Assembly: GCA_001600635.1 (NCBI GenBank)
Contig: BCKL01000020.1
Span: 62,001-126,000 of the forward strand
DNA from: Leucosporidium creatinivorum
Taxonomy: Eukaryota > Basidiomycota > Microbotryomycetes > Leucosporidiales > Leucosporidiaceae
Direction: 5' to 3'
DNA: 64,000 bases
Part shown: positions 4,970 to 38,416 of the stretch, piece by piece
How the letters are laid out: every line of letters begins with the position of its first letter
Position numbering within the stretch: the stretch's first letter is position 1
Notes under the pieces: generated by a model
Databases searched by the model: none
Seen by the model: only the letters and a program-made list of their open reading frames with translations
Told to the model about the DNA's origin: nothing
Made by a program: the position numbers and the translations under genes

Positions 4970-6331
4970 ATGGATGGACGTCGAGAGAGGCGAGCCAGTT
5001 CGAGGCAAAAAGCTGTCCCTGCGGTGTTACAAACCATTTTACTCACTACCGTGCTTCACGACGATGGACGGTCGGATACTGAGCACCAGAAAGCTCGTCG
5101 AGAAGCTCGGCGCTCGGCGGAGGGGCAAGAACCGGAAATCAAGGGTTTGCAGCATCGTAGTAGAGCTCAGAGTTTGCTCTCTAGTACACTCGAGCTGACT
5201 ATCAGCGGCGAAGCCTATCTGCCAGACGTACCGGAGGTGCGAGTCCAACTAGCAGCAATGGCCCTCGTCACCCGGAGCTGGCGAGCTCCATCGCAGGAGT
5301 TATTGCTCTCCACCTTCTGCACACCAAGCATCTTCTGGGTCTGGGAGCGGTTTCTCCTTCGTTGCGCTAGGCCTACTTTCCCTCCTCTGCGGCACCTCTA
5401 TCGGCTGCAGCTCGCTGTCGGCGCGGATTCGGCGGACCAGCTCGCGCTTCTCCAGCGCGAGAGCATTCACGTAGAAGAGTTGCGCGTTTCAGGCAAGACA
5501 CTCAAAATCGGCGCGACTCAAGCTTCGATCTTTCGGAGTGCGTGTTGTCCTCTCAGTGCCCCGAAACCGTACAGAGCTGACCCAAACTCTCGTCCAGATC
5601 TTCGGCGACTGAAACTGCAGGCTTCTTCGATCGACGTCGCCGACTCCTTGGATACATTCAACCCTCTCATGCTGAAAACACTATGCATCGACTCCCGTCT
5701 CCCCAAGCTCTCATCCTTCCTCACCCCGCTCTCTGTCATCTCCCCTGACCTCACCAGCCTCGAACTCGACCTCTCGGCCAGCCCTCTCTCCAGTACACAC
5801 GACGCTCCATTACAGGAGATCGCCCCTCACCTTCGTCAGCTCAAGCTGGACTACTCCTCGCGGGTGGAGTATCGTCATCAAGGGCGTACCCTCGTTCGCA
5901 GTCGAATTATGACCGCCGAACCGCACGACACATTCGACTTTGCAGCTTTCCTTGCTGCCTGCACATCTCTCGCGGCATACCACTCCCGAAAGCAGCGTCC
6001 TACAGACCTGCTCAACCATCTCTCCAACCTCCCGCGTTCTCTCCTCTTCCTGGACGTTCGAGTCTACGTCGAGAAGCAAGGCGAGGTCAACGACTTCCTC
6101 GAGCGTATCCCGGATGTCCTCGAGTTGGGATGCATGGCGCAAGTACGCCGATGGAGGTTCACCTGGCAGTGCGAGCATCGTATCATGATCCTCCAGAAAA
6201 CGCAGGACTCGTGGAAGGAAGCTTGCCGAGCGCGCGGGATTGAGCTCCGTGGGGTGCGCGCTACTTCACGGGTAAGCTGCCTTCCCCTTAGCTCTCATGG
6301 CTCAAAGCTGACCCTCTCTCCTACAGACTGA
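4970..6331 (+). CDS. F-box family protein 1, degenerate F-box, cassette 1 first gene
   Basis: This is the first of eight local paralogues. The body is clearly family-like: VTRSWRAPSQELLLSTF, then an intron at about 5538-5597 (GTGCGT donor), then LRRLKLQ and leucine-rich stretches, ending with the signature CRARGIELRG. The usual N-terminal F-box (compare MAVIQDLPPEILYRIFEL in the 29335 gene) is not visible. Only a weak trace, LLSSTLELT, sits where it should be, so the start given is just the first in-frame ATG. Near the 3' end the block encoding RGDERYFT in paralogues is one base shorter, which shifts the frame before the terminal intron. It may be a decayed gene or a diverged one with a changed C-terminus. 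If expressed, loss of the F-box helix would be expected to stop Skp1 binding. Confidence 0.55.
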   Translation: MDGRRERRASSRQKAVPAVLQTILLTTVLHDDGRSDTEHQKARREARRSAEGQEPEIKGLQHRSRAQSLLSSTLELTISGEAYLPDVPEVRVQLAAMALVTRSWRAPSQELLLSTFCTPSIFWVWERFLLRCARPTFPPLRHLYRLQLAVGADSADQLALLQRESIHVEELRVSGKTLKIGATQASIFRSACCPLSAPKPYRADPNSRPDLRRLKLQASSIDVADSLDTFNPLMLKTLCIDSRLPKLSSFLTPLSVISPDLTSLELDLSASPLSSTHDAPLQEIAPHLRQLKLDYSSRVEYRHQGRTLVRSRIMTAEPHDTFDFAAFLAACTSLAAYHSRKQRPTDLLNHLSNLPRSLLFLDVRVYVEKQGEVNDFLERIPDVLELGCMAQVRRWRFTWQCEHRIMILQKTQDSWKEACRARGIELRGVRATSRVSCLPLSSHGSKLTLSPTD

Positions 6332-6560
6332 TCGCTCAATCACTACGGAGGGTGGGCCTATCTCTCCTCTCCCTTTGAAGCGCTCGCTGGCCCTTGGCGC
6401 TGACCTCCTTCACCTCGCAGGCGGGCTGAAAGGATGGAGCGATGTACAAAAGAGCGAGAGCAGCTGGGCAAGACACGAGATACCCCGGCCGTGCGATGGA
6501 GCTGGCTCTGTACCCTAGCCTTGCAGCGAGAGCGAGAGACGGCGAAGGAGGCTCGGCGAT
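6332..6560 (+). repeat. Family 3' block after F-box gene 1, with probable 3' UTR intron
   Basis: The segment matches those following the F-box genes at 19588 (minus), 28289 (plus) and 37257 (minus). It begins in a 25-base micro-exon that carries the usual stop, followed by a donor reading gtgggcctat and an acceptor ending cctcgcag. Further on is a shared run around gcgagagcgagagacggcga. It marks the first gene of each two-gene cassette. Confidence 0.6.
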
Positions 6561-6639
6561 GGTCGACTGGCGCTCGACGAGCTGCGAGCTCGATCGGGAG
6601 CACTTGAAGCTCAGCAGTAGGGGAAAATGTAGCACGACT

Positions 6640-7260
6640 TCTCCAATCCAGACCAGACGACCCTTGAGCTGAAAGGAGAACAGCAGGAAGCCGAGTACGG
6701 GGAGAGGCGAGCCGAAGCTGGTTGCGCCGAGGGGGAGCAGAAAAGCTCGTCGTGGTACGGCGGCACTCGATCCCCGCTCTGCACTCCACCACATCTCCCA
6801 CCGACCACCTCGCCCAGGTCGAGAACACCCCTCTTCCCCTCGCCCTCTCCGCTCGAACCGCCCCAAGCTTAGACGTCCGTTTGCTCCTTGCCCTCCCACC
6901 ATTCACTTGACTCGTCTCGCTCGTTTCGCCCGCTTCAACATCCCGCTCAGCTGGGCACAAAGGACAGCTCTACTATCAATCTCTACCACCCTCGCCCGCT
7001 TTCCCCTCGTCGACGGAGCCGCTCGAGAAGCTTGGCGGGAGGACAGGACCGCGTGCTGTGCTGAGAGAGACGAAGCTGCTGCTCGGAGTCGACAATTGCT
7101 GCTGAAGGTGAGTAGTGTTGCTCTGCTGGAGAGTATGAGGTGTTGTGTGTGTGCTCTGAGGTGGCTAGGAGGGTGAGAATAGACGAGCTGGAGCGCTGAG
7201 GAGGGTTCAGTCAAGCTGGGACGGGAGAGCTGATGCGTGGGAGGAAGCTGGAGAGCTACA
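6640..7260 (+). repeat. Conserved leader block upstream of F-box gene 2
   Basis: This non-coding block recurs upstream of most of the F-box genes (about 18815-19290, 28600-29160, 36470-36950, and in shorter form 20985-21250 and 26610-26900). Recognisable parts, in order, are gctgcgccgag, agacgtccgtttgctccttg, gacagctctacta, the run ending ttgctgctgaag and then a gtgagtagtg donor. A GA-rich acceptor follows near 7240. It most likely holds the promoter and a non-coding first exon with a 5' UTR intron. No conserved reading frame crosses it. Confidence 0.6.
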
Positions 7261-7366
7261 TAGAGACTCTCCCGAGCGCATAGTTGACCTCTCATTACCG
7301 GCCAATAGCTACATCGGCTTCTCTCATCCCCCTCGACCCGTCGCCGAGCTCCACACCTCGGCCGAG

Positions 7367-8535
7367 ATGGCCGTCGTCGGAGACCTACCACCCGAGCTTC
7401 TCTACCGGATCCTCGAGCTTACGGTCCAAAAGACGGAGCCCCACTACGAGGAGCCAGAGACGAGGAGAACTTTCGCCAGTGCATCACTCGTGTCGCGAAG
7501 GTGGCGAGCTCCCGCGCAAGGACTCCTCGCATCAACACTCTCGGTGGTCGCCGCGTGCGGGCGCTGGATAGCCTATATAGACGTACTCAACAACCCTGGT
7601 AGAGCGTCACCGAAGCGGCTGAAGTGTGTACTGGCTAGCCCCAGTCAGGAGCTGGCAGACGAGTTCGCCCTTCTCCAGCGCCACAATGTCCGTATAGACG
7701 AGCTGTCGTCATCAACACGCCTTTACAAGCTGATACGCAGAACATTCAGATCCTCCAGAGTATGCCGGTCTTGATGAACCACTAGCACGCTGAGCTTCTA
7801 CTGACCACCCACTGTGCTCTCAACAGGGCTTCGGCGTTTGCTCCTGTTTGCGCCCATCGAGGTAGATCAGACTGCTCATGTGGAAGGTCCTACGTGGTTG
7901 GAGTACCTCTGCCTTAGCGCCAAGGTACCCGCCGTCCCTTCCTTCCTCCTTCCCTTCTCTACTTCGGCGCCTCGCCTCACGTTCCTCGAGCTCGACTGCT
8001 GGGACCACTCCTTCCAAGACGCTTTCCAGTCACCCCTTATCGAACTCGCTCCTCGACTCGCCCAGCTCCGGCTCACGGTCTCCATGCAGAGCCCCGACGT
8101 CCAGCAATCGGACATCCAAAAGCTCAAGTCCTTCCTCCGCGCCTGCACCTCCCTCACCACCCTCCGTCTCTGCAACCCTACCGGCAAGACGGTGGTCCAA
8201 GTCCTCTCGCTGCTACCCTGCGCTCTACTCTTCCTTGACGTCTGGGCTCTCACGCACACGAAAGGGACTGTCGGAAGATACGCAATGGTGAGCGACGTCG
8301 GCGAGGCGTTCGACATGCCGTGCATGGCACAGCTACAGCGTTGGAGGATGACGCTGGAATCGTTTGATGAACCTGCGCTCGGGAATTATGGTGGGCGGGA
8401 GTGGGCTGCAGCTTGTCGGGCTCGAGTGATCGAGCCTCGCGGCGACGAGCGCTACTTCACGGGTGAGCTGTGTGCATCTCTGTTCCCTCCCTCCCTCCCG
8501 TCGCTCCAGGCTAACTCTCTCACGCTGAAGACTGA
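7367..8535 (+). CDS. F-box family protein 2, cassette 1 second gene, probably frame-broken
   Basis: It starts with a clear F-box helix, MAVVGDLPPELLYRILEL, followed by LVSRRWRAPAQGLLAST. After the central intron (donor gtatgc near 7758, acceptor aacag near 7827) come GLRRLLLF, leucine-rich stretches and CRARVIEPRGDERYFT. The terminal intron (gtgagc to ctgaag) then brings in AC TGA, giving a D and a stop at 8535. The segment from the ELSSS codons to the central donor is one base shorter than in the paralogue at 27165, so exon 1 and exon 2 do not join in frame by the family pattern. This is either a one-base sequencing or assembly error or a true frameshift. A role as SCF substrate adaptor is inferred from the F-box only. 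Confidence 0.65.
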
Positions 8536-8974
8536 CGACCCGCCGACTACGAACGGTGCGCATGTCCTCGTCTCTTTCCCGCCTCGGTCATCCTTGGGAG
8601 CTCGGCGCTGACCCTCTTCGCCTTCGCAGAGCCCCCTGGAACGGTCGCTCGGTGCACAGAGGTGCGGAGGCTAGTGTGGAGAGGAGTAGATACCGGTGGA
8701 GATGTGCGATGTAAACTTGGCTTTTGGTACCGTACATAGCTGAGCCGCTAGCGAGGTGAGCAAGGCGCAGCGAACCGATTCTTCGCTGCTGCTCTGCACC
8801 TCCCTCCTTCGCTCCTCCCTTCTCAGCGAGCGCGTAGCGTGAACTACCTCTGCATCTATTCGTAACAACAAATAATCTCGACCCTCACCTCCTACGCTAC
8901 GCTGGAACCCATCTCCGCATCACATCACCCATCCCTCGTCCGGCGCCCCGCCCAACTCCCGCCCCAGCGCCCAA
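8536..8974. other. Convergent gap between F-box gene 2 and the G-patch gene
   Basis: The left part continues the family 3' pattern: the micro-exon ends in gaacg, a gtgcgc donor follows, then a ctgac branch and a ttcgcag acceptor near 8630. The rest is low-information 3' flanking sequence shared by two convergent genes. Confidence 0.5.
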
Positions 8975-10044: not shown

Positions 10045-10130
10045 GTGTTATGTAATCGAGAAGAGGTTGAAGAGGGAGGGAGAGAAGCGAATGAATTGCG
10101 GGTTGGAAGAGACGACAATAGCGGAGAGGA

Positions 10131-17117: not shown

Positions 17118-18546
17118 TCAGTCTATAGCAAGAGAGGGAGTTCAGCTTCCGGTCGACGGAGGAGGTGGTAGAGCAGCTCAGCCGTAAAGTAGCTCTCGTC
17201 GCCTCGAGGCTCAATGCCTCGGGCGAGACAGGCGGCCTCCCACTCGCTCTCCATAGAAGCGCCGCCATAGTAGAAGTTCTCCCACATATCATGGATCCTC
17301 CAGCGGCGTAGCTGAGCTATGGAAGGCAGGTCCAGCACTCCGAGAAGCTCGGGCGGTAGTCGATCGGCGAGGGGGTCCAAAGTGAGCTTGGAGATGACCA
17401 GTAGGGTGAGAGGGTGGGAGATGAGTGAGAGGAGGAAGTTTAGAGTGGATGGCTTCACGCTGTAACTATTGAGAGCCGTGAGCGAGGTGCAGGCGGAGAG
17501 GATGGCTTTGAGGGAGGAAAGGACGGGAGGAAGCAGATCGGCCATGGGAGAGTCCGCAACCACGTCGGGGTATGTGAGCCTGAGTTGGGAGAGTTGAGGT
17601 GCTACCTCCAGAAGGGTCTCTTGAAGCTCGTTGGTGGGGCCATCAAGCTCGCAGTGCAACTCGAGGCGGGTGAGCTGAGGCGCCCGTTTCGAAAGGGGGG
17701 ACGAGGAAGGAGGGGAGGTTGGATAGGTGAGTCTCGAGGGCGAGGCTGTGAAGCATCATTGGGGAAGCCTCCATGAAGTCTTTGTCAACCGTGACCTCCC
17801 CGCACAGCGACAATCGGCGGAGCTCTGTCAGGCAAGGCATCAGTTCTGGAGGGAGACGTATCGGCTCAGAGGGGGTACACTGTTGGAAGGGATTGGTGGA
17901 GCAGAGTTCGGAGCATTCGGTCAATGTAGCATGGAGGGCTGGCGGGAGCTTAGGAGGATGGCTGGGGATTTGAGGTCCGAGCTCGGCGGGATTGAGGCGG
18001 CGCGAAGGCTTTCGTTGGCTCGGCATCTCGAGTACAACAGCTAACGCGCTGCATCAGGTGAGAAGAGTAGAACTACACTGCATTAGATCTCGAGTACAAC
18101 AGCTAACGCGCTGCATCAGTCCCCGCGAACGAATCGCTTCTCTACAAACACCTACTGCCGACCAGATCTTCATGTGAGGCGTTGAGCCCGACGCCGTTGC
18201 CGAAGATTTCAAGCTCTCCCACCATGATCTGCACCCGTTGCAGCGTCGCAAGCTCGTCGGCCGAATCGGGCGCGTCGACATGAAGGCGCCCCAAGCGCAT
18301 CGGACGGGATCCTCGAGTGCTGGATACTGCGTTGATGAACCTCGTCCACTTTGGACTCCGGCAGTTGACCTCGTGGGTTGAGCTGAGGAGATCCTGCGAA
18401 GGGGTGCGCCAATCCTGGGCGACGAGTGAGGTGTGGGTGAACAGGTGTCTGGTGAAATCCTGTCCCATGGCGTAAGTTTGATCGTCTTCCGTGAGCTCAG
18501 GGACGCGGTGGAGGATCTCGGGAGGCAGGTCCTGGATGGCGGCCAT
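17118..18546 (-). pseudogene. F-box family gene 3, broken, cassette 2 second gene
   Basis: The gene opens with MAAIQDLPPEILHRVPEL and LVAQDWRTPSQDLLSST and is closest to the paralogue at 35060-36221. Three lesions are visible against that copy. First, the run near 17690-17700 has one extra G, shifting the frame after SFLVPP. Second, the terminal donor reads acggctgag instead of acgggtgag, destroying the GT. Third, the central intron region carries about 280 bases of extra sequence (roughly 17860-18140), including a 33-base direct repeat. Downstream parts remain recognisable (LRRWRIHDMWE, ARGIEPRGDESYFT), so decay is recent. The lesions apply to this assembly and one could be a base-call error, but three together support a pseudogene. 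Confidence 0.7.
18025..18119. repeat. 33-base direct repeat, two copies 62 bases apart
   Basis: The same 33 bases, beginning atctcgagtacaacagc, occur at 18025-18057 and 18087-18119. Both copies fall in the extra sequence inside the central intron region of the broken F-box gene and are absent from its paralogue. The repeat suggests a local slippage or repair duplication. Confidence 0.8.
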
Positions 18547-18814
18547 CTCGGCGGAGGGGTGGCACTGAAGCTCGGCGTTGGGTCGAAGGGGGTTGAGAGG
18601 GAGGGTGTAGCTGTATTTGGAGGCGGAGTGTTAGTCCCGCGTTTCGCTTCGATCCTCTGCAGCTCTCCAACTTCCTGCGACCCGTCAGCTGGTTCCTCAT
18701 AGCTCAACCGAACCCTCCTTAGCGCTCCCGCTCGCCCACTCTCGTCCTCTCCACCTCCGAGCACACACAGAACGCTTCCTGCTCTCCGCAGAACAGCACT
18801 ACTCACCTTCAGCA

Positions 18815-19290
18815 GCAATTGTCGTTCCGAGCAGCAGCTTTGTCCGTCTCTCTCAGCACAGCACGCGGTCCTGTCCTCCTTCCCAGCTTCGAGAGCGGCT
18901 CCTTCGACGACGAGGGGAGAGCGGGCCAGGGTGATAGAGATTGGCTGTAGAGCTTAACTGCTGTCCTAGCTAAGCGAGCTGTCAAAGAGGGCGAAACGAG
19001 CGAGACGAGCAAAGTGAATGGNGGGAGGGCAAGGAGCAAACGGACGTCTGAGCTCGGGCGGTTCGAGCGGAGAGGGCGAAGGGAGAGGGGTGTTGTGAGT
19101 TGGATGTGGATGTGGATGTGGATGTGGATGTGGTGGAGTGTAAAGCGGTGACTGGAAGCTGGTGTACCACTATGAGCTCTTTTGCTGCCCCTCGGCGCAG
19201 CCAGCGTCGGCTCACCTGTCGCGCTGCTGAGTCTGCTGCTGGTCTCCTCCCAGCCTCACGGCTCGCCTGCTCAATGAATATGGAGTAGGG
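18815..19290 (-). repeat. Conserved leader block upstream of F-box gene 3
   Basis: Read on the minus strand it matches the block at 28600-29065. The parts from the hexamer repeat to the agacgtccgtttgctcc segment are nearly identical, and the matches become weaker from about 19018 leftwards. The segment ending ttgctgctgaag with its gtgagtagtg donor lies near 18818. It is probably promoter plus non-coding first exon. Confidence 0.6.
19101..19133. repeat. GGATGT hexamer microsatellite
   Basis: About five and a half copies of tggatg/tgtgga-type hexamer stand in the leader block. The same tract in reverse complement stands at 28744-28776, in the mirrored block upstream of F-box gene 6, with the same number of units as far as can be read. 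Confidence 0.8.
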
Positions 19291-19587
19291 CTACGTCCCA
19301 ACGAGTCTTTGGTCTCTCGACTGGACAGGACGCTGAGTGCCAGGTCCGACTACCGCCGAGCTTTTGCTTCGCCGCCTCTCGCTCTCGCTGCGAGCCTAGG
19401 GTACAAAGCAAGATTCATCTCATGGCAAGGGTATCTGAACTTTCGTATAGCGTATCCTCGCTTCTTCGTGCAGCGTTTTGTCGCTCCAGCAAGTCTGCGA
19501 GAGGGTGAAGTAGATCAACGCCGAGGTCGAGCGAACGCCGCAAAGGGAGAGGAGGAGATAGGCCCACCGTTCGTCGTGGTCGAGCCA

Positions 19588-20712
19588 TCAGTCTGTAGGA
19601 AGAGAGGTCAGCTTCGAGTCGTGAGAGCGAAGAGTGGAGGTAGCTCACCCGTGAAGTAGCGCTCATCGCCGCGAGGCTCAACACCTCGAGCTCGACAAGC
19701 TGCGTTCCAGTCGGTCTCGCCACCATCGATGAAGCTCGGAGAACTCTCTATTCTCCAGCGCTTCAGCTTGGACATGCTGGGGAGGTCGAACGCCTCGGCG
19801 AGCTCGTCGGGCATTCGATCACAGAGGGTTTCAAGGCGGAGATTCGAGATAGTGAGTAGAGTGAATGGACTCCGGAGGAGAGCAAGGATACGCTTCGTGA
19901 TGGATGGCGCTACTCCGTTGAGGTCGAGAGTAACTACTGAGGTGCAGGCGGCGAGGAATGCATCGAGGCAGGGAAGGGAGTGGAGCGCCTCTTGCTCCAC
20001 AGTTAGCTGGAGTTGCGTGAGGCGGTTGGCAAGGGATACGAGCCCAGCTTGTAGAGTGCTGCTGAGTGCGTCATGCCTGCAGAATAGCTCGAGACGGCTG
20101 AGGCGAGGAGCGATCGTAGCGAAAGGGAGAAGGAAGGAGGGGATCTCGGTGAGGTCTGAAGTAATGCTAAGTGTCTGTAGCATCATCGGGGTGGGAGTAG
20201 CAAACCCTCCGCCGACAGCAGCCGCAGCCGCGGAGCTGTACAGCTTTAGGCAGCGCAGTCCTGCAATAACAGTCACGGTTACTTCGAGTTTCGGCCTACC
20301 GTCGGGGCGAGTGCTTACCACTAATGAGGCGAGCGTGTAGCGCACCGAGTGGTTTTCCCGCACCGACGATANACAGCTGCTGCACCTCAACACACTGACG
20401 TTGTANAAGCGCGAGCTCGTNGGCNGATGTCTCCGTTACGACGACGATCAAGGACCCTAGCTGCTTCGCAGGGGAGCCGTGCGGAGAAGCGATGNCCTCN
20501 AGGANCTTCCTATACGNCTGGGTGCGCCACGTGTTGAACCGAAAAGTTGAGGCGAGGAGGCGNTGTGCAGGGGCTCGCCAAGCTCGGGCGACGAGCGCCG
20601 CCTGGCGAAACGTTGGGCCCACGCTCTCACCCTGAGTCGCGATAGATGGGATAGCTACGAGCTCGAGGATTCGATCAAGGAGCTCGGGTGGCAGGTCTTG
20701 GATGACGGCCAT
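19588..20712 (-). CDS. F-box family protein 4, cassette 2 first gene
   Basis: The protein starts MAVIQDLPPELLDRILEL, then VARAWRAPA and LLASTFRFNTWRT, an intron (gtaagc donor, attgcag acceptor) and GLRCLKLYSS. Leucine-rich stretches such as PRLSRLELFCRHDAL follow, then CRARGVEPRGDERYFT and a terminal intron giving D and stop at 19588. Nine ambiguous bases lie in exon 1 (20371-20563), so the exact sequence of that part is unknown. The copy at 27165-28289 on the opposite strand is nearly identical over the whole gene with no length difference. A visible change is EPRG here against EPRD there. It is likely intact. The F-box suggests Skp1 binding and the leucine-rich body suggests substrate recognition; both are inferences. 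Confidence 0.75.
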
Positions 20713-21496
20713 AGCGAAGGAGAGGGTGTGAGAGAGCAGAGAGCGCCGGGGAGAAGTCGAAGGAGCCGGCGTAGGAGAGCGAGGGTAGCTTCGGTTCTAT
20801 GTGGGGGGAAAAAGGTAAGAGATAGACGCAACGCGGGCGCCAACCTGCTCTGCTACAGCTCCTCAGCCGGCTTCCAGCGGCGATGCACTCCCTCAACATC
20901 AGCTCCAGCATGCTCTGCACTACCGCCAATCGCCTACAGCAGAGCACAGGCTGCACCCCAGTCACTCAAAGACTAAGCACTCACCTTCAGCAGCAGTCGT
21001 CAACGCCCAGCAGCAGCAGCAGATCACAGCTCCTCGTTCCCAGCAGCTTTCCCGTTTCCAGCTTCTGTAGTCCTTCGAGCGCGATGGGAGAGCGGTCGGT
21101 ACCAGCGATGGTGGTGTGTGAGTCGGAGTCGTGTCTTAGCTGAGCGAGCTGTCGAGACGAAGAAGCGAGGCGATGAGAGAGGAAGCAAGAGGGAGAGAGC
21201 GATGAGACGCGAGCAAGTCGAGGTCGGAAAGGGGCCGAGTGCAGTTATACGCGGAGCAAGGGCTGTTTGCAGCGTACGACTCTACTCAATTCTGCTCTGT
21301 CGAGTTCTGCAGCCCTTGAAGCGGCTTGACAAGCCCTGCTCGGCGAAGGCTCGGCGCTTCCTTTCGCGTCTCTTTCCTCCTTTCGCCTCTACCCTCCTTC
21401 ACCCCTCACCAACCCAAAGATCAAGCGCAAATCATTTACTGCAAGCTACACCCACGTCACCTCTCGCCCTCACCCTCTCCCTGCTGACTCGTTCCC
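20713..21496. other. Region upstream of F-box gene 4 and downstream of AOS1
   Basis: The segment from 20713 to about 21250 corresponds to 26610-27164 in mirror image, but with many substitutions and length differences, unlike the near-identical gene bodies. It includes a short leader block (20985-21250) with the gctgctgaag and gtgagt donor. The rest is the AOS1 3' flank. No gene is seen. Confidence 0.5.
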
Positions 21497-24146: not shown

Positions 24147-24425
24147 GATCTGTAGCAGAGTAGACGGGGTCAGCCTGGCGCGACAAAGCCGAGCGGAAGC
24201 TGATGGACGATGATGCGAGGCGAGAGACGCACTGTTTGCTTGTGAGGGCTGTAGGGGAGTGGGATTAGCTTCTAATGAGGTACAGAAGTGTAATACAGCT
24301 ACTTACGGGGTGTAAAGTGCTTGAAAAGTGCGAAAGAGGCTACAAAAAGCGGAATGGGCGGAACTCAAGAAAGTCGAGCGGGCGAGAGCAGGGGGGTTGC
24401 CCTCTGTCGAATCACTAGAGCCGAG
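24147..24425. promoter_or_regulatory. Shared divergent promoter of TOM22 and CTU2
   Basis: The two genes point away from each other with about 280 bases between start codons. No specific element could be assigned by eye. Confidence 0.4.
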
Positions 24426-26327
24426 ATGAGCTGCGGTCAACCTCCACCAGATGAGGTACAAGAGCTACCAGGTGAGCTCTGTCAGCCTCTCCTGCTACCG
24501 CCCTACAGCTCACGCTCTTTCTCGCTTCCTCAGCTGCCGTCGCCCCCGCCGCTACCTGCGTTCGCTGCTCGCTACCACCAGGCATCGTCGTTCGCACCAC
24601 TTCCTACTGCTGGTCGGTATCTTCTGCACTATTTCTCGCTATCCCTGCTGACTCAGCTCCCTTCAAACGATGCAGGGAGCACTTTCACGACCACTTCACC
24701 TTTGCCTACCGCAAGGGCATCGACGGCGCGAGGACTCGGAGTCGTTCAGGTCGACCGCAGGATGCGGTGAATGGAGCGAAGCGAGGCAACAAGCGGTCAA
24801 AGGTTATGCTCGCCTTCTCTGGCGGCGCTTCGTCCAGGTGGGTCTGGCGCCGAGCTTGCTCCGAGATGAGAGCTGATCATATTATCGTCTTCAGGGTATT
24901 GCTCGATCTACTACAGGCCAACAACTTCAGCCGACCGGAAGATCCCAGCCAGTCGAACCCCCGATTCAAGCCACCACCGATATTCGAGTCGCTCGAGATC
25001 CTCTACGTCGATGAGAGCGGTGTACCAGGCTTCGGAGTGAGCTGCAACGTACTTAATCGCGCACCGTGACACTCTACTGACAATCTCGTTGAATTGCAGC
25101 CCGACCGGACAGAGGAAGTTCGCGCCCTAGTCGCCGAGACCCCCTTCACCTTCCGCTCGGTCAAGTTCGAATCCATCTTCTCTTCCTCTTCCACAACCTT
25201 CTCGACCTCCTATTCCTCCCCTTCCCTCCCCACCACCACCGCCAGCAGCAGCTCAGCGACCCCTGCCTCACCACTCGACTCCCTCCTCGCCCTCCTCTCA
25301 CCCAAAACCCACTCCCCCACCTCCCTCTCCTCGCTCCACTCCTCCCTCCGGCACTCCCTTCTTCGTCGTGAATCCCTTTCGTCAGGATGCGAGATCCTCC
25401 TCACCGGCGAAACAGCCAACCGAGTCGCGATCCTAACAATCTCTGGTATGGCCGAAGGGAGGGGATATAGTATGGGCGAGGAAGTGGGATGTGAATGGGA
25501 GGCTGAGGAGGGGTTGTTGGTCGCGAGGCCGTTGAGCTCGATTTTGTTGAAGGAGGTGTTGTTTTATCAGAGGACGAGGGAGTTGGGCAGTTTGACGATG
25601 AGGAGGCCGCAGACGGGGGTGGAGCCGAAGAAGGCGGGGATTGAGGCGCTGGTGGAGGGTGAGCTTCGTCTCTCTCTCTTTCTCAACAAGACGAGCGATG
25701 GCTGACCCTAGCTTGCCTGAACAGACTTCGTCAACGGCCTCGAAGCCAACTTCCCTTCCACCGTCTCGACCATCATCCGAACCGCACAAAAGTTGGGCAT
25801 GCGCTCCGCCGACGAGAGGGAGAGGAAGGTCGAAGGAATTCGATGCCCTCTTTGCGGCCTGTACGTTCTCCCCCCCTCGCTCTCTCTGCTACCTCCCGCT
25901 GACCGCCCCTCCCGACTCGAACAGACCCGCCCAACTCGGCGCCGAGGATTGGAGGAAAGCCATCACCATCTCCACGCAGCACGACCTTCTCGCCGCTGCT
26001 CCTTCCTCGACCTCCCCTGCCACTCCCTCCCTTCCAGCACCCTCCCCACCCCCCTTCAACGCCTCCGACGCCGAGTCCCTCGCCCCCCTCCTCTGCTACT
26101 CCTGCCTCCTCATCATGCAGGGTACGCTGCCACCTCCACGCGGTGCGCCTACACCGATTGAGGCAGAGGAGGGCAAGACGGTCGTACTGCCGCTGTATGT
26201 GGAGGAGATGGCGCGAAGGAGGAGGAGGATCGCCGAAGCCGAGGAGGAAGAGGCTGTAGGGACGAGGACGGTGAAGGGTGAGGAGGGGGTGAGGAAGGAG
26301 GTGGAGGGGTATTTGCTGGATGAGTAG
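24426..26327 (+). CDS. CTU2: Cytoplasmic tRNA 2-thiolation protein 2
   Basis: The spliced protein opens MSCGQPPPDEVQELP, then a cysteine-containing segment ATCVRC and YCREHFHDHFTFAYRK, and the PP-loop-like VMLAFSGGASSRVLLDLL. Later come CEILLTGETANRVAI, the RPLSSILLKEVLFYQR segment, and GIRCPLCGL with a second pair LLCYSCLLIM, the zinc-type cysteines of Ctu2/Ncs2. In yeast and animals the Ctu1-Ctu2 complex thiolates the wobble uridine of lysine, glutamate and glutamine tRNAs, using the Urm1 sulfur carrier. A low-complexity serine/threonine/proline insertion (near 25180-25330) is an oddity of this copy. Introns lie near 24470-24530, 24615-24675, 24835-24895, 25035-25100, 25658-25725 and 25860-25925. 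Confidence 0.85.
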
Positions 26328-27164
26328 GATGCTGAGCCGACCAAGGGCATTACAGAAGACGGAAGATGCTCGGCAGGGGTGGCGAGCGTGAGAGTGAGAA
26401 GAGAGCGTCAACACGTGGCGGAGGACTTCGGGAATTGATCTCGGTAAGCTTCGACTCCACGACCCGGCCCCGAGCCTGAGACAGAGAGGCGACAGACGAG
26501 GCGCTCGGCAAAGAAGTTGGCTCGGTGAGGCCAAAGGACAGGATGGAAAGACATGCGGCACTGCTGTAGAGGTTAGAGCGTACTCTGTAGTATGATGCAC
26601 TGCTTTCGAGACCGCTCGGTCCAGTCTGTCACCCCTTTCCGGCCTCTACTTGCTCGAGTGCTCGCGTCTCTCGCTCTCTCCCTCTTGCTTCCTCCCTCAT
26701 CGTCTCGCTTCTTCGTCTCGACAGCTAGCTCAGCTAGGACAGGACAGAAGCTCATACAGCACCACTTCCTGCTACCGCCCGCTCTGCCTCGCCGCGCTCC
26801 AAGGACTACAGGAAGCTCGACGCCGGAAAGCTGCTGTGACGGGAACGCTGAGATCTGCGGCTGCTGGGCGTTGACGATAGCTGCTGAAGGTGAGCTGTTC
26901 GTCTTCGAGTGATGAAGTGTAGAGACAGACTGCTCTGGCTCAGGCCATTCGTGGTAATGAAGTGCATGGTGGAGCTGATGTTGAGCGAGTGCATCGCCGA
27001 TGGAAGCCGGCCGAGGAGCTGTAGCAGAGCAAGTTGGCGCCCGCGTTCAGTCTATCGCTGAACTTTTGTCCCCGCACACAGAACCGAAGCTACCCTCCCT
27101 CTCCTACGCCCGCTCCTTCGCCTCCTCCCCGGCGCTCTCTCACATCCTCTCCGGATCTTTCGCT
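26328..27164. other. Region between CTU2 and F-box gene 5, with a leader block
   Basis: The first part is CTU2 3' flank. From about 26610 to 26900 is a short version of the F-box leader block, ending gctgctgaag with a gtgagc donor near 26890. The last 260 bases are the 5' flank, related to but clearly diverged from the mirrored 20713-20970. No other gene is seen. Confidence 0.5.
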
Positions 27165-28289
27165 ATGGCCGTCATCCAAGACCTACCACCCGAGCTCCTT
27201 GATCGAATCCTCGAGCTCGTAGCTATCCCATCTATCGCGACTCAGGGTGAGAGCGTGGGCCCAACGTTTCGCCAGGCGGCGCTCGTCGCCCGAGCTTGGC
27301 GAGCCCCTGCACANCGCCTCCTCGCCTCAACTTTTCGGTTCAACACGTGGCGCACCCAGNCGTATAGGAAGNTCCTNGAGGNCATCGCTTCTCCGCACGG
27401 CTCCCCTGCGAAGCAGCTAGGGTCCTTGATCGTCGTCGTAACGGAGACATCNGCCNACGAGCTCGCGCTTNTACAACGTCAGTGTGTTGAGGTGCAGCAG
27501 CTGTGTATCGTCGGTGCGGGAAAACCACTCGGTGCGCTACACGCTCGCCTCATTAGTGGTAAGCACTCGCCCCGACGGTAGGCCGAAACTCGAAGTAACC
27601 GTGACTGTTATTGCAGGACTGCGCTGCCTAAAGCTGTACAGCTCCGCGGCTGCGGCTGCTGTCGGCGGAGGGTTTGCTACTCCCACCCCGATGATGCTAC
27701 AGACACTTAGCATTACTTCAGACCTCACCGAGATCCCCTCCTTCCTTCTCCCTTTCGCTACGATCGCTCCTCGCCTCAGCCGTCTCGAGCTATTCTGCAG
27801 GCATGACGCACTCAGCAGCACTCTACAAGCTGGGCTCGTATCCCTTGCCAACCGCCTCACGCAACTCCAGCTAACTGTGGAGCAAGAGGCGCTCCACTCC
27901 CTTCCCTGCCTCGATGCATTCCTCGCCGCCTGCACCTCAGTAGTTACTCTCGACCTCAACGGAGTAGCGCCATCCATCACGAAGCGTATCCTTGCTCTCC
28001 TCCGGAGTCCATTCACTCTACTCACTATCTCGAATCTCCGCCTTGAAACCCTCTGTGATCGAATGCCCGACGAGCTCGCCGAGGCGTTCGACCTCCCCAG
28101 CATGTCCAAGCTGAAGCGCTGGAGAATAGAGAGTTCTCCGAGCTTCATCGATGGTGGCGAGACCGACTGGAACGCAGCTTGTCGAGCTCGAGGTGTTGAG
28201 CCTCGCGACGATGAGCGCTACTTCACGGGTGAGCTACCTCCACTCTTCGCTCTCACGACTCGAAGCTGACCCCTCTTCCTACAGACTGA
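27165..28289 (+). CDS. F-box family protein 5, cassette 3 first gene
   Basis: This is the inverted twin of the gene at 19588-20712, with identical exon structure and no length difference. The start MAVIQDLPPELLDRILEL, central intron (gtaagc donor near 27560), the LRCLKLYSS exon, and the end EPRDDERYFT followed by D and stop at 28289 are all present. Eight ambiguous bases lie in exon 1 (27314-27471), at positions that mirror those of the twin. The frame is otherwise open, so it appears intact. Differences from the twin are few, in contrast with the diverged 5' flanks. Confidence 0.75.
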
Positions 28290-28530
28290 TGGCTCGACCA
28301 CGACGAACGGTGGGCCTATCTCCTCCTCTCCCTTTGCGGCGTTCGCTCGACCTCGGCGCTGATCTACTTCACCCTCTCGCAGACTTGCTGGAGCGACAAA
28401 ACGCTGCACGAAGGAGCGAGGATACGCTATACGAAAGTTCAGATACCCCTTTCATGAGATGAATCTTGCTTTGTACCCTAGGCTCGCAGCGAGAGCGAGA
28501 GACGGCGAAGCAAAAGCTCGGCGGTAGTCG
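28290..28530 (+). repeat. Family 3' block after F-box gene 5, with probable 3' UTR intron
   Basis: After the stop, the micro-exon ends gacgaacg, a gtgggcctat donor follows, then a ctgatc branch and a ctctcgcag acceptor near 28381. The same structure in mirror image lies at about 19345-19587, and diverged forms lie at 6332-6560 and 37020-37256. Confidence 0.6.
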
Positions 28531-28599
28531 GACCTGGCACTCAGCGTCCTGCCCAGTCGAGAGGACCGAAGACCCGTTGGGGCGTAGCTCTACTCCATG

Positions 28600-29160
28600 A
28601 TCATTGGGCAGGCGAGCAGTGAGGCTGGGAGGAGACCAGCAGCAGACTCAGCAGCGCGACAGGTGAGCCGACGCTGGCTGCGCCGAGGGGCAGCAAAAGA
28701 GCTCATAGTGGTACACCAGCTTCCAGTCACCGCTTTACACTCCACCACATCCACATCCACATCCACATCCACATCCAACTCACAACACCCCTCTCCCTTC
28801 GCCCTCTCCGCTCGAACCGCCCGAGCTCAGACGTCCGTTTGCTCCTTGCCCTCCCGCCATTCACTTCCTCGTCTCGCTCGTCTCGCCCTCGTCGACAGCT
28901 CGCTCAGCTGGGACAAAAAGACAGCTCTACTACCACACTCTACCACCCTCGCCCGCTCTCCCCTCGTCGCCAAAGGAGCTGCTCTCGAGCCTTGGAGGGA
29001 GAGACAGGACCGCGCGCTGTTCTGAGAAGAGACGCCCGGAAAGCTGCTGTTCGGTATTGACGAGTGCTACAGACGGCGAGTTCACTGTTCTGTTAGCGAG
29101 TCTGAGACGTTCGGCGTGTGCTCTGAGGTGGACAAGAGGGCGAAAATGGAGGAGCTGAGG
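28600..29160 (+). repeat. Conserved leader block upstream of F-box gene 6
   Basis: It is the mirror of 18815-19290. The left part, up to about 28859 and including the hexamer tract at 28744-28776, is nearly identical to the mirror. To the right the two diverge sharply. The block presumably supplies promoter and non-coding first exon for the gene at 29335. Confidence 0.6.
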
Positions 29161-29334
29161 AAGGTCGCTGGGTCCAGTCGAGCGGAGCGAAGAGCTGCCG
29201 GGTCGGAGAGAGTGGTAGAGTTACAGTGGGTCGAAGTAAAGTGCAAAGCTAACCATCTCCTCCTCACCGACAGCTGCACCCTCCCTCTCAACCCCCTGCC
29301 GACCCATCGCCGAGCTCCGGCCCCCCCGGCCGAG

Positions 29335-30495
29335 ATGGCCGTCATCCAGGACCTACCGCCCGAGATCCTCTACCGGATCTTCGAGCTTACGGAGAAGAAG
29401 ACGGGCCGCTTCAGCTCCGACAGTCTCAATACGAGGTGCACCTTTGCCCGCACAGCTCTCGTCGCCCGCAGCTGGCGTGCACCTTCGCAGGACCTCCTCG
29501 CCTCGACCTTGGCGGTCCATGAATGGGACGGTCTGTGGGAGCGATACCTTGGCATCCTCGACGCCTCTCCCTGCCTGACAATCCACAGACTGAAGCACCT
29601 TACCCTTGGCAGCAAGGAAGGCTCGGCGGATGGACTTGCTCGGCTCCAAGAGCGACAGGTCGCACTGCAAGAGCTCGAAGTCGCACTGAATAGCATAATG
29701 CTGACTGCTGTACATGCTCGCCTGCTCGAAGGCTCACCGCTGAATGAAAAGCAAACGCCGAAACGAGCTGACAAGCGACCTTCAACCAGGACTACGGCGA
29801 CTGACGCTTTCTGGCTCAATCGTTCGGGATGAGAGTGTCGAGGAGTACGCAACGTTGATGCTGGAAGCCCTTCACATCTACTCGGCCCTATATGAGCTGC
29901 CTCCCTTTATGCTCCCTCTATCGACCGTCGCCCCTCGTCTTACTCGGCTCATCCTCAACACGTGGGACTACCACCTCTCCGACACATACAACGCACCCCT
30001 ACACGATCTCGCTCCTCAACTTCGCCATCTTCATCTCGAACTCAATCCGACCTCGCCGCTCGAAGGAGGCGACGGCTGTCTCGCTCTGGATCGCTTCCTC
30101 TCGAACTGCTCCTCCCTCGCTTCCTTCGAGGTCGACACCGTCAGCCCTTCAGACTTGAAGACACTGCTACAACTCCTCCCCGCCCCTATCCAACTACTCC
30201 AAGTCTCGCTTCGCCTTCGAACGTCGCAAAAAGAGCGGGACTTGATGACGTTGCACTTCTCTGGCGTCTTTGAGCATCCCTGCATGGTGCAACTGAAACG
30301 CTGGAGATTGTGCGGGTATACCGGCCACGGTATGCGTACGAGGGACATAGCGGAGCGGGCAATGGCAGCGTGGCGCGCAGCTTGTCGAGCCCGAGGCATC
30401 GAACCTCGCGGCGATGAGCGCTACTTCACGGGTGAGCAGCTATCCCATTTCTTCTCTCGTCTAAACGTTGAAACTCACCTCTCGCTGCAGACTGA
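29335..30495 (+). CDS. F-box family protein 6, cassette 3 second gene
   Basis: The protein starts MAVIQDLPPEILYRIFEL, then LVARSWRAPSQDLLASTLAV. The second exon begins GLRRLTLSGSI and carries leucine-rich runs (PRLTRLILNTWDYHL, LAPQLRHLHLELN), then CRARGIEPRGDERYFT, the terminal intron, D and stop at 30495. The central donor position, fixed by the family phase-1 pattern, reads ctcgaag followed by gctcac, so the intron would be of the GC-AG type or the donor is damaged. Everything else is open. The unspliced frame upstream of 29335 is leader and not family-conserved protein. Confidence 0.7.
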
Positions 30496-34745: not shown

Positions 34746-35059
34746 AGCATCGGAGTTGATGAAAGCAAAAGCCACCGAGTGGCATGTCGATATTGTCGGA
34801 CACCGAAGCGAGAGGCGAGAGCTCGAGGTCGCGAAGACCTCAACCGCTGCTCTCGGCGAGGAGGGTCGAGCAAGATGGCTCAGATGAGAAGCTCGATTGC
34901 TATCGTAGAGTAATACACGTCTTTCATACATCTCTCCTTCCATTTCTTGACCCTTTGAGCTGCACACGACCTGCGAAGGCAGCAGCGTCAGCTCGACTCA
35001 TCATCGCCGAGCAGCGAGAGCGAAGGCCACCGGCTCACCAGATCCAGAAGGGCAGGAAA
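34746..35059. other. Convergent gap after TRP4
   Basis: The interval is a 3' flank shared by TRP4 and F-box gene 7. No gene or repeat is seen. Confidence 0.4.
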
Positions 35060-36221
35060 TTAGTCTGCACAAGAACAGAAGTGAGTCAATGTGTGAGACC
35101 AAGCTACGAAAAGAGCCGCTGACCTGTGAAGTAGCGCTCCGCGCCTCGAGGCTCAATTCCTACCGCTCGGCAGGCCGCTTCCCACGGGCTCTCCTCGGCA
35201 TCGCCTCTGTAAAGATACTCCCACGCATCGGAGATTCTCCAGCGGCGTAGCTGAGCTATGGACGGCAGGTCCAGCACTTCGAGAAGCTCGGGCGGCAGTC
35301 GATGGGCGAGGGGGTTAATGCCGAGCCTGGATGTGACCAGTAAGGTGAGAGGGTGGGCAATGAGGGAGAGAAGGAGTTTGAGAGTAGGTGGGTTTGCGCT
35401 GTAGAGATTGAGAGCTGTGAGCGAGGTGCAAGCGGGGAGTATGGCATCGAGGAGAGAGAGAATGGGAGGAGAGAGGTCGGCGATGGGAGAGAACGCGGCG
35501 ACTATGGGGAGCGTCAGGCTGAGCTGGGAGAGTTGAGGTGCTACCTCCAGAAGGGACTGTTGGAGCTCGTTGGTGGGGTCACTAAGCTTGCAGTACAACT
35601 CGAGGCGGGTGAGCTGAGGCGCCCGTTTTGAAAGGGGGACGAGGAAGGAGGGGAGGTCGGGTAGGAGAGTCTCGAGGGCAAGGCTGTTGAGCATCAGTGA
35701 GGAAGCCTCCATGAAGTCTTTGTCAACCGTGACCTCCCCGTACAGCGACAATCGGCGAAGCTCTATCAGGGAAGGCGCCACCCTGCATCAGTTTCGGAGC
35801 GAAACGGATCGGATGAGGAGAGAGACCTACTGCCGACCACATCCTTATGTGAGGCGTTGAGCTCGATGCCGTTGCCGTGGATGTCTAGCTCTCCCACCAT
35901 GATCTGCAGGCGTTGCAGCGTCGCTAGCTCGTCGGCCGAATCGGGCGCGTCGACAAAAAGGCGCTTCAAGCGCATCGGACGGGATCCTCGACTGCTGGAT
36001 ATTGCGTTGATGAACCTCGTCCACTGTGGATCCCGGCAGTTGACCTCGTGGGTTGAGCTGAGGAGATCCTGCGACGGGGCGCGCCAATCCCGGGCGACGA
36101 GTGAGGTCCGGGTGAATAGGTGTCTGGTGAACTTCTGTCGCCCGGCGTAAGTCTGATTGTCTTCTGTGAGCTCAAGGATGCGGTGGAGGATCTCGGGAGG
36201 TAGGTCCTGGATGACAGCCAT
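35060..36221 (-). CDS. F-box family protein 7, cassette 4 second gene
   Basis: The protein starts MAVIQDLPPEILHRILEL, then LVARDWRAPSQDLLSST and a central intron whose frame-keeping donor reads gtctct (near 35829). The second exon gives LIELRRLSLYGEVTV, PQLTRLELYCKLSD and LRRWRISDAWEYLY, then CRAVGIEPRGAERYFT. The terminal intron gives D and, unlike the others, TAA. The 25-base micro-exon after the terminal acceptor seen in most paralogues is not conserved here. It is the intact counterpart of the broken gene at 17118-18546. A substrate-adaptor role is inferred from the F-box. Confidence 0.75.
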
Positions 36222-36469
36222 CTCGGCGGAGGGGAGCAGCTCGGCGATCAATTGGGGGGGTGGGGGGAGGAGTGTAGCTGTGTTTGGAGGCCAGATGTTA
36301 GCCTCGCGTTTCGGTTTGATCCTCTGTAGCTCTCCAACTTCCTGCGACCCGTCAGCTGGTTCCTCATAGCTCAACCGAACCCTCCTCAGCGCTCCCGCTC
36401 GCCCACTATCGTCCTCTCCACCTCCGAGCACACACAGAACGCTTCGTTGCCCTCCCCAGAACAGCACTA

Positions 36470-36950
36470 CTCACCTTCAGCAGCAATCTTCAACTCCGAG
36501 GAGCAGCAGCTTTCCGGGCGTCTCTTCTCAGCACAGCGCGCGGTCCTGTTCTCCTTCCCAGCTTCGAGAGCAGCTTCTACGACGACGAGGGAAGAGCGGG
36601 CGAGGGTGGTAGAGTGTGGTAGTAGAGCTGTCCTTTTGTCACAGCTGAGCGAGCTGTCGAAGAGGGCGAAAAGAGCGAGACGAGCAAAGCGAATGGCGGG
36701 AGGGCAAGGAGCAAACGGACGTCTGAGCTCGGGGGTTTCGAGCGGAGAGGGTGAAGGAAGAGGGGGTGCTGGGAGTCGGATGAGTCGGAGTGGGGTCAAT
36801 AGTAGAGTGCAGAGTGGGTATGGAGAGCTGCTGTAGCACGGCAAGGTCCTCTGCTGCTCGCCCTCGGCGCAGCCAATTCCGCCTGGCTCTCCGCCCTGGT
36901 CAGCTCTCTGCTGCTCTCCACCCGACTTGAAATCTTGTCTGGCCATTCAA
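36470..36950 (-). repeat. Conserved leader block upstream of F-box gene 7
   Basis: Read on the minus strand it matches the other blocks in order: gctgcgccgag, agacgtccgtttgctccttg, gacagctctactaccacac, then attgctgctgaag and a gtgagtagtgc donor near 36475. The acceptor near 36345 is preceded by a ctgac branch. Confidence 0.6.
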
Positions 36951-37019
36951 GAGAGTCCTGCACCGCTACTGAGTTTTAGAAACCTTCGAGGCAGCTAGCA
37001 GCTCGTCGAGCCCCGATCG

Positions 37020-37256
37020 ACCATCGCCGAGCCTCCTTCGCCGTCTCTCGCTCTTGCTGCAAGGTTAGCGTACAGAGCAAGCTCGATCGCATGGCAGGGG
37101 TATCTCAAATCTTGGACAGCGTATCCTCGCTCTCTCGTACATCGCCTCGCCGCTCCAGCATGTCTGCGAGGGATTGAAGGAGGTCAGCGCCGAGGTCGAA
37201 GGCGCGCTTCGAAGGGAGAGGGGAAATAGGCCCACCGTTTGTAGTGGTCGAGACAT
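37020..37256 (-). repeat. Family 3' block after F-box gene 8
   Basis: On the minus strand it contains the micro-exon end acaaacg, a gtgggcctat donor, a ctgac branch and an acceptor near 37168, then the shared gcgagagacggcgaagg run. It leads directly into the leader block of gene 7, giving the head-to-tail cassette order. Confidence 0.6.
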
Positions 37257-38416
37257 CAGTCTGTAAGAAGAGAGGGTCAGCTTCGAGCTATGATAGCGAA
37301 GGGCGATGTAGCTCACCCGTGAAGTAGCGTCGGTCGTCGCGAGGCTCAACTCCTCGAGCTCGACAAGCTGCGTGCCATTCCTCCCCCATCGTCCCGCTCA
37401 AAGCTTCTTCATAGCCCTTAAACAAGAAGTTTTTAGTCATCCTCCACCGTCGTAGCTGAGCCATGCAAGGAAGAGTGAAGGCGTCGACCAGTTCCTTCGG
37501 CAGCTGATGTTCGTGCTCTTCGAGTCGAAGGCCGATAACGTCGAGGAGGATGAGAGGATGCTCTAAGAGGGAGAGGGTGCTGTACAGTTCTACCGCGCAG
37601 CATCCTTCCACCGAGAGTGCGGTGAGAGAGGTGCAGGCGCGGAAGAAGGGCTCGAAGCAGGAGAGGCTGTCGTGCCGTTGATTCGGAAGGGATGTAACGG
37701 CAATGTCCAGTTGCTGGAGTTGCGGGGCCACTGAACGAAGAGGTGTGACGTCGAAGGGGGCGCCCGACCGAGTGCTGACCCATTGCAGGTCAAGGCGAGT
37801 GAGCCGAGGGGCGATAGTCAAGAGTGGTTGGAGGAAGGAGGGGAGGCGTGGAAGGGACGAATGCAGGCGGAGAACTTCTAGTGCCATCGTTCCTACGTCT
37901 TGTGAATCTCCTTCGAGGGTGATGGGGGTTGCCAGAGCCAGGATGCGGAGACCTACGAAAGTGATCAAGGGAAGGTGAGCGTCGCTATTCTGTGTACCCT
38001 GATTGAGCGAGGAGTGCACCTTGCAGTAACGGCAAGTGGGCTCCGCCGACGAGCAAAGGAGACGTGTACACGTGCAGCTCCTCCACCTTGACTTTGTTCG
38101 TTGCCCGAAGGGCGAACCTACTCAGCGCCGAGTAGTTGGTGCCGGAGAAGCCCAGACGCTTGACACGCTGCAGGCGAAGGGACTTTGACTGTGCAAGTGT
38201 CTGGATGTATCGCGACCATTTCCAGCCTGCTGTATCCATCTTCAAGAGCGAGGAGAGGAGCGACTGGGAAGGAGCTCGCCAGCACGGAGCAACGAGAGCC
38301 GTCCGGGCCAGGCCGTACGTCGACTCGCCCCGAGGTTGGAGGGTGTTCTTGTACTCCACCGACAGTTCGAGGATCCGAGTGAGGATCTCGGTGGGTAGAT
38401 CTTGGATGATGGCCAT
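37257..38416 (-). CDS. F-box family protein 8, cassette 4 first gene
   Basis: The protein starts MAIIQDLPTEILTRILEL, then LVAPCWRAPSQSLLSSLL. A central intron (donor gtgcac near 38023, acceptor cgtag near 37953) joins LLQG to LRILALATPI in phase 1. The body has PRLTRLDLQWVSTRS, PQLQQLDIAVTSL and MAQLRRWRMTKN, then CRARGVEPRDDRRYFT, a terminal intron, D and stop at 37257. It looks intact. The upstream region differs from the leader block of other copies; instead the gene is divergent from the protein kinase with about 540 bases between starts. Confidence 0.75.

What the first reader, a model, noticed from the sequence alone, without database searches (positions are those of the whole stretch)
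4970..38416. Four two-gene F-box cassettes in alternating orientation, spaced about 10 kb apart
Eight paralogous F-box genes occur strictly in pairs: 4970-8535 (+), 17118-20712 (-), 27165-30495 (+), 35060-38416 (-). In each pair the first gene ends in a shared 3' block, then a shared leader block precedes the second gene. First genes resemble one another (micro-exons TDRS, TDVS, TDGS) and second genes fall in two subtypes (7367 with 29335, 17118 with 35060). The cassettes are separated by conserved, unrelated genes rather than sitting in one tandem array. Seen in sequence are the pairing, orientation and shared blocks. That the unit moved or was copied as a cassette is inference. Such dispersed pairs could diversify substrate recognition in SCF ligases, or be a mobile gene unit of an unusual kind.
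Basis: partly seen in the sequence, partly recalled or inferred. Interest (0 to 1): 0.8.

Follow-up and report, generated by a model that had tools for sequence, protein, structure and literature searches.

The report
F-box genes swapping within shared frames
In a fungal chromosome, paired F-box genes sit inside closely similar stretches of non-coding DNA while the genes themselves differ greatly and have been swapped from one pair to another, which suggests a reshuffled library of recognition proteins rather than a jumping gene unit.

Summary
Four two-gene F-box/LRR-like cassettes lie at 4970-8535 (+), 17118-20712 (-), 27165-30495 (+) and 35060-38416 (-), among ordinary genes. They belong to a fungal family of about 76 loci (lower bound, hand-merged).

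Coding trees do not separate first and second genes, and cassettes were not copied whole. A shared non-coding frame (spacer 73-84% identical) holds two coding slots with separate histories. A2/B2 leaders differ by 12% (intron 8%), while 51 of 78 comparable fourfold sites differ; conversely N/P coding is nearly identical (5 of 182) but leaders differ by 20%. AU tests reject a common topology both ways. Leader divergence follows distance along the contig (rho 0.74); coding divergence hardly does (0.14). Contig C24 repeats the pattern with a largely unrelated spacer.

Best explanation: local ectopic gene conversion/recombination homogenises frames and swaps coding bodies. Transposon signs were not found. 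Neighbouring blocks tend to alternate in orientation (P 0.0005-0.03 by block threshold). Function, diversified SCF substrate receptors, is inference. One genome only; no expression data.

The parts
4970..6267 (+). C1: first gene of cassette C; F-box start decayed and frame shifted before the conserved YFTG end; probable pseudogene
   Evidence: Open frame 4922-6328 without the MAVIQDLPPELL start
6208..7418 (+). Shared frame of cassette C: end of first gene, 3' tail, leader exon, leader intron, start of second gene
   Evidence: As DNA (6250-7400) it gives 18 matches including itself, all on contig C20, the others 69-82%; edges at about CDS1 end -60 and, in most pairs, ATG2 +55
7367..8461 (+). 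C2: second gene, core coding region to YFTG; intron positions uncertain
   Evidence: Own splice model, no stops
17183..18546 (-). D2: second gene of cassette D; splice model uncertain
   Evidence: sister of F2 (100/100)
18547..19649 (-). Shared frame (spacer) of cassette D
19650..20712 (-). D1: first gene of cassette D
   Evidence: Coding practically identical to E1, 1 of 192 fourfold sites differs
19012..20721 (-). Near-identical tract shared in inverted orientation with 27156-28866: probable recent gene conversion
   Evidence: 99% and 97% arms; leader upstream only 75-90%; ambiguous bases in both arms
27156..28866 (+). Partner arm of the near-identical tract
27165..28227 (+). E1: first gene of cassette E
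28228..29334 (+). Shared frame (spacer) of cassette E
29335..30430 (+). E2: second gene of cassette E
   Evidence: sister of B2 (100/100)
35125..36221 (-). F2: second gene of cassette F
36222..37317 (-). Shared frame (spacer) of cassette F
37318..38416 (-). F1: first gene of cassette F; coding sister is the single gene S59 at C20 59207; its leader matches none of those compared

Best explanation
Each cassette is a two-slot frame. The frame is mainly non-coding: a leader exon, a leader intron of about 200 nt, the spacer and the 3' tails, plus about the first 18 and last 20 codons of each F-box/LRR-like gene. Between these edges lies the variable coding body, the predicted substrate-binding LRR part. 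Ectopic homologous recombination, chiefly gene conversion between copies on the same contig, keeps frames alike and moves coding bodies between frames in blocks. Shown here: frame and body histories are decoupled in both directions, coding bodies are mosaic between cassettes, frames are most alike between near neighbours, and a second cluster shows the same. Inferred: gene conversion as the agent (rather than repeated reciprocal exchange or duplication with loss); that the genes make SCF substrate receptors; that a varied repertoire is what selection keeps.
For: Of 276 gene pairs on C20, 40 have leaders within 25% difference, and 30 of these differ at 40% or more of comparable fourfold sites; of 6 pairs with close coding (25% or less), 5 have leaders at least 18% apart. 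Leader introns, unlikely to be strongly constrained, differ by only 8% in A2/B2 but 33% in N/P. AU tests: leaders reject N+P (p 0.011), B2+E2 (0.006), L+N+P (0.002); coding rejects O+P (0.0025), A2+B2 (1e-9) (groups named after seeing the trees). Identity profiles change at the ATG, for example A2/B2, O/P, B2/E2 and N/P. Among 16 genes leader distance follows contig distance, rho 0.74, P 1e-4; coding distance does not clearly, rho 0.14, P 0.065. C24: unit 405 shares first gene and spacer with unit 355 (88%), spacer and second gene with unit 454 (84%, then 97%), and with unit 418 the spacer (83%) plus shorter end pieces. The C24 spacer matches C20 only over 127 nt or less. A control stretch of the window matches only itself.
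Against: One genome, so no direct observation of conversion. In 9 of 17 pairs compared, leader exon 1 is more alike than the leader intron (exon 10-16% different in 13 of 17, intron up to 37%), so part of the frame's likeness may be ordinary constraint. D2/F2 are concordant, and leader and coding distances still correlate overall (rho 0.37, P 3e-4). Gene models lack RNA evidence. F-box scores are weak: 7 of 10 members match Pfam F-box-like at E up to 0.1, best 0.0018. Structure models are poor (mean pLDDT 57 and 65). dN/dS of 0.32-0.59 in close pairs gives no sign of positive selection.
Confidence: 0.78

Rival explanations
1. The frames are old regulatory DNA under strong purifying selection; coding bodies simply diverged, without exchange.
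For: In 9 of 17 pairs leader exon 1 is more alike than its intron; all 16 leader places found by blastn in the held part of C20, the query's own included, precede a family gene.
Against: Cannot explain coding younger than leader (N/P, B2/E2, D1/E1), likeness of leader introns (8% in A2/B2), or the absence of the C20 spacer from C24 at the search's threshold (from the C24 side at most 127 nt match C20).
Confidence: 0.1
2. A mobile element or capture cassette that transposes as a two-gene unit.
For: Dispersed copies between unrelated genes; fixed inner edges of the shared spacer; one of 6 units has an 8-nt flank match reached by about 1% of random pairs.
Against: Inverted ends at chance in 6 of 6 and flank duplication at chance in 5 of 6; outer borders vary; no Pfam match in 10 spacer ORFs; contents mosaic; one spacer type found on C20 only, the other with long matches on C24 and C6 only.
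Confidence: 0.05
3. Tandem and segmental duplication with loss; the mosaic reflects differential loss from larger ancestral arrays, not exchange.
For: Same-strand tandem neighbours (20 of 20 within 3 kb) and a block of four genes on C24 at 400.9-406.5 kb.
Against: Identity changes inside genes, as in J/M (no blastn match from +151 to about +530) and N/O (matching again from about +790), which loss of whole genes cannot give.
Confidence: 0.12
4. Assembly artefact: near-identical arms and mixed haplotypes create false mosaics.
For: All 30 ambiguous bases of the window lie in its two 99% inverted repeats, 28 of 30 at mirrored positions (five sums computed, the others by hand).
Against: Most discordant pairs differ by 10-60%, far beyond mis-joining of alleles, and the pattern recurs on C24.
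Confidence: 0.05

Closest known systems
F-box/LRR (FBXL, SKP2-like) SCF substrate receptors
   Same: F-box-like start followed by an LRR-like body; best PDB profile match is SKP2, E 2.6e-4; Foldseek lists NLRC4, SKP2 and ASK1-D3 weakly, best E 0.0035
   Different: Short (mostly about 290-410 aa core), F-box score weak, not assigned to a known subfamily
Caenorhabditis F-box expansions (PMC8665587, abstract read)
   Same: Large species-specific F-box families that grow by duplication
   Different: The abstract names tandem duplication and gene-structure change, not conserved frames with exchanged coding bodies
S-locus F-box (SLF) genes of plants (PMC11161657, passages read)
   Same: Multiple F-box genes acting jointly in non-self recognition; gene conversion has been proposed
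   Different: No linked target gene or mating link shown here; a fungus; two-slot frames
Segment switching in snake three-finger toxin genes, ASSET (PMC2474615, abstract read)
   Same: Introns highly similar beside exon segments that differ sharply and appear exchanged
   Different: There segments within exons; here almost the whole coding body inside a 1.2 kb frame, in tandem pairs
Cassette-exchange systems such as trypanosome VSG or yeast mating cassettes (recalled)
   Same: Conserved flanks around variable contents
   Different: A single active site, a silent store or a programmed nuclease were not tested for and nothing points to them

Membership tests
F-box/LRR SCF receptor | F-box domain over the curated cut-off | tested here: inconclusive
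   7 of 10 members at E<=0.1, best 0.0018; the one member shown in full is below cut-off. In the six-frame search two C24 stretches at family loci (372749, 245273) pass the cut-off
F-box/LRR SCF receptor | LRR body | tested here: inconclusive
   Profile match to SKP2, E 2.6e-4; model pLDDT 65, Foldseek best E 0.0035
F-box/LRR SCF receptor | Binds Skp1 in an SCF complex | not testable with these tools
   Needs a binding assay
Transposable element or mobile cassette | Terminal repeats and target-site duplication | tested here: not met
   inverted ends at chance in 6 of 6; direct flank match at chance in 5 of 6, borderline in C. Borders were taken from homology, so the test is limited
Transposable element or mobile cassette | Encodes mobility enzyme | tested here: not met
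   10 spacer ORFs, no Pfam match at E<=0.1
Multigene family shaped by ectopic gene conversion | Conflicting trees for neighbouring segments | tested here: met
   AU tests; trees
Multigene family shaped by ectopic gene conversion | Likeness of copies falls with distance | tested here: met
   Leader rho 0.74, P 1e-4, 16 genes
Multigene family shaped by ectopic gene conversion | Conversion seen between strains or generations | not testable with these tools
   Only one genome held
Programmed cassette-switching system | One expressed site fed by silent copies | not tested
   No expression data

The most novel reading that the evidence does not exclude
This fungus keeps a recombining library of F-box recognition receptors. 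Conserved non-coding frames act as homology arms through which variable recognition bodies are exchanged within a contig, giving new receptor repertoires without changing expression signals. Alternating orientation is favoured because recombination between inverted neighbours only inverts the genes in between, several of them probably essential, whereas direct neighbours would delete them. The repertoire might serve non-self, viral or parasite recognition.
Probability: 0.2. Interest if true: 0.85.

Novelty: new variant of a known kind. Interest (0 to 1): 0.62.

Why it matters
In most gene families coding sequence is conserved and flanks drift; here it is often reversed, and coding and flanking histories contradict each other in both directions. 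If the bodies are substrate-recognition modules, this is a natural system for reshuffling ubiquitin-ligase specificity, and a fungal case in which the role of a large F-box expansion could be tested. The alternating orientation offers a testable idea of how a recombining family can live among genes that cannot be lost.

Tried and rejected
Coding exon in the leader: rejected for most of it, because 1-2 nt length differences between copies break any common frame, 10 spacer ORFs have no Pfam match, and no conserved ATG was seen by eye. Structured RNA in the leader: none found, alifold energies no better than shuffled columns (z 1.6, 0.8 and 1.4 for exon parts, -0.6 for the intron). Rapid evolution by positive selection as the cause of body divergence: not supported, dN/dS 0.32-0.62 over the 15 pairs tried, dS above 1 in 6 of them (the D1/E1 ratio rests on almost no changes). 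Transposon: see rivals. First versus second genes: not separable in coding. Structure prediction: weak models only. Literature: 9 searches of an open-licence library; judged by titles and starts of abstracts, none listed a paper on this family, which is no proof that it is unpublished. PMC4469406 (passages read) has a table row of ten PF00646 F-box counts from 3 to 43; this genome gives at least 128 F-box-like matches (a different model, so not strictly comparable). The organism was not identified: uL3 against the PDB has best matches in entries that are, from recall, fungal.

Dropped before counts: one C4 locus (hits 312766-313834) was left out of the orientation list; exon hits were merged into genes by hand; C1 and the unfetched locus at C20 328116 were left out of the leader/coding pair table of 24 genes; F-box loci on C20 outside this family were not counted; the distance test used 16 of the 24 genes (those with the second-gene type of leader). 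The orientation result depends on the block threshold: 0 kb (single genes) P 0.77; 3 kb 0.026; 4 kb 0.015; 5 and 6 kb 0.00045; 7 kb 0.0005.
Full report
WHAT IS THERE. The window is C20:62001-126000 of a 27.7 Mb, 63-contig genome. uL3 at 58345-59055 has its best PDB matches in entries that are, from recall, fungal. The four cassettes are real; I call them C, D, E and F, and further pairs on the contig A, B, G and I. With my own splice models (codon and splice-site scores, no RNA evidence) I followed 24 genes on C20 plus the decayed C1. A typical gene starts MAVIQDLPPELLxRILEL, has a variable middle, and ends W.AACRARGIEPRGDERYFTG before an intron and a micro-exon. Upstream lies a leader: an exon ending in a splice donor (consensus GCTGAAG|GTGAGT), an intron of about 200 nt and a short exon before ATGGCC. 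Between cassettes lie ordinary genes: fatty acid hydroxylase and HAM1-like between C and D, ThiF-like and Tom22 between D and E, a weak SET match and a glycosyltransferase family 3 gene between E and F.

FAMILY. Searching the genome with two members gives 99 and 120 matches, mostly exon by exon, which I merged by hand to about 76 loci (list): C20 26, C24 25, C6 12, C28 7, C17 4, C10 2, with one C4 locus left out. The tool says such counts are lower bounds. F-box identity is supported but weak for single members; two stretches at C24 family loci exceed Pfam's cut-off.

THE FRAME IS OFTEN YOUNGER THAN ITS CONTENTS. The spacer of cassette C as DNA gives 18 matches including itself, all on C20. 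Among cassettes A-F the spacer is 73-84% identical, leaving aside B/E and D/E, whose alignments run on into related genes. In all 14 of the 15 cassette pairs that have unrelated first genes, likeness begins 58-70 nt before the end of the first gene's core; in 10 of the 13 pairs with unrelated second genes it ends 45-64 nt after the second ATG, the other three at +165, +169 and +170. Inside these edges the coding bodies mostly give no DNA match. For A2/B2 the 540-nt leader differs by 12% and its intron by 14 of 186, whereas 51 of 78 comparable fourfold sites differ and protein identity is 41%. Of 40 gene pairs with leaders within 25%, 30 have a fourfold difference of 40% or more.

AND SOMETIMES OLDER. 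N/P coding is 96% identical (fourfold 5 of 182) but the leaders differ by 20%. B2/E2, L/N, L/P and D1/E1 behave likewise; D2/F2 is the one concordant close pair of six. Trees conflict: leaders join O+P and A2+B2, coding joins N+P and B2+E2, and AU tests reject the alternatives (groups were chosen after seeing the trees). Constraint on the flank alone cannot give this; exchange is needed. Constraint may still add to it: leader exon 1 is more alike than the leader intron in 9 of 17 pairs, less alike in 6 and equal in 2.

MOSAIC CASSETTES. E has the first gene of D (1 of 192 fourfold sites differs) and a second gene sister to B's; D's second gene is sister to F's; F's first gene is sister to the single gene S59. 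Profiles show changes of identity at the ATG and inside genes. J/M match upstream for 2.5 kb (89%), have no match from about +151 to +530, then match again at 81%. D1/E1 are 92-100% identical (mostly 99-100%) from the ATG to about +1.7 kb, with the leader at 75-90%: a tract that spans the gene and part of the spacer.

REPLICATION AND CONTROLS. A C24 spacer gives 40 matches including itself: those on C24 and C6 at 71-85% over up to 1 kb, those on C20, C17 and C28 only over 127 nt or less. On C24, unit 405 shares first gene and spacer with unit 355 (88%), spacer and second gene with unit 454 (84%, then 97%), and with unit 418 the spacer (83%) plus shorter end pieces. A control stretch (24250-25400) matches only itself. 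Among 16 genes leader difference rises with distance on the contig (rho 0.74, P 1e-4); coding difference hardly does (rho 0.14, P 0.065); leader and coding differences also correlate (rho 0.37, P 3e-4).

ORIENTATION. Within 3 kb, 20 of 20 neighbouring family genes share a strand; between blocks 34 of 50 neighbours alternate (permutation mean 27.2, P 0.026), on C20 14 of 17. With 5 kb blocks 31 of 42 alternate (P 0.0005; within blocks then 25 of 28 share a strand). Other F-box loci, neighbours less than 60 kb apart, alternate at 29 of 50 with 3 kb blocks. C28 does not follow (2 of 6) (all). My reading, an inference, is that recombining copies in direct orientation are lost or delete what lies between, while inverted ones only flip it.

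HOW IT PROBABLY WORKS. Local ectopic gene conversion homogenises leaders, spacers and tails and moves whole or partial coding bodies between slots. Bodies stay under purifying selection (dN/dS 0.32-0.59 in close pairs), so most are probably working proteins; C1 is decayed, P has a stop codon in its F-box start (seen by eye), and B1 is doubtful (stops in its matched stretch). By domain makeup they would be SCF substrate receptors. What they recognise is unknown.

COMPARISON. Large F-box families (Caenorhabditis), F-box sets with proposed gene conversion (plant SLF), and similar introns beside swapped coding segments (snake toxins) are each known from papers seen in part (PMC8665587 abstract; PMC11161657 passages; PMC2474615 abstract). 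I found no report of the combination in nine searches of one open library. I rate it a new variant of gene families shaped by conversion, not a new kind of mobile element.

LIMITS. One genome, no relatives, no expression data; 48% of C20 read; 30 ambiguous bases in the window, all within its two 99% inverted repeats.

Noticed in passing
window 52683-54214 and 56799-58320: A second 99% inverted repeat: a fragment of a ribosomal L3 gene lies at the left copy and the main L3 match beside the right one; between them lies what reads by eye as a flap endonuclease 1 gene (54200-55960; recalled resemblance, no search). Six ambiguous bases in each arm.
   Followed up: partly
window 19022-20563, 27314-27471, 53762-53917, 57096-57251: All 30 ambiguous bases of the window lie in the two near-identical inverted repeats, 28 of them at mirrored positions, so reads could not be assigned to one copy or the culture was mixed.
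   Followed up: partly
C20:134465/136654 and 205637/207812: In these two pairs the order of leader types is the reverse of that in the other pairs compared.
   Followed up: no
window 37318-38416: F1 has a leader unlike those compared (29-49% to S59 upstream of the ATG) although its coding is sister to S59: its promoter may have been replaced.
   Followed up: no
leader exon 1, e.g. window 6843-7111: The leader exon is well conserved across copies (10-16% different in 13 of 17 pairs), with no reading frame and no RNA structure found: perhaps a promoter or UTR element.
   Followed up: partly
whole genome: At least 128 F-box-like matches, most outside this family.
   Followed up: no
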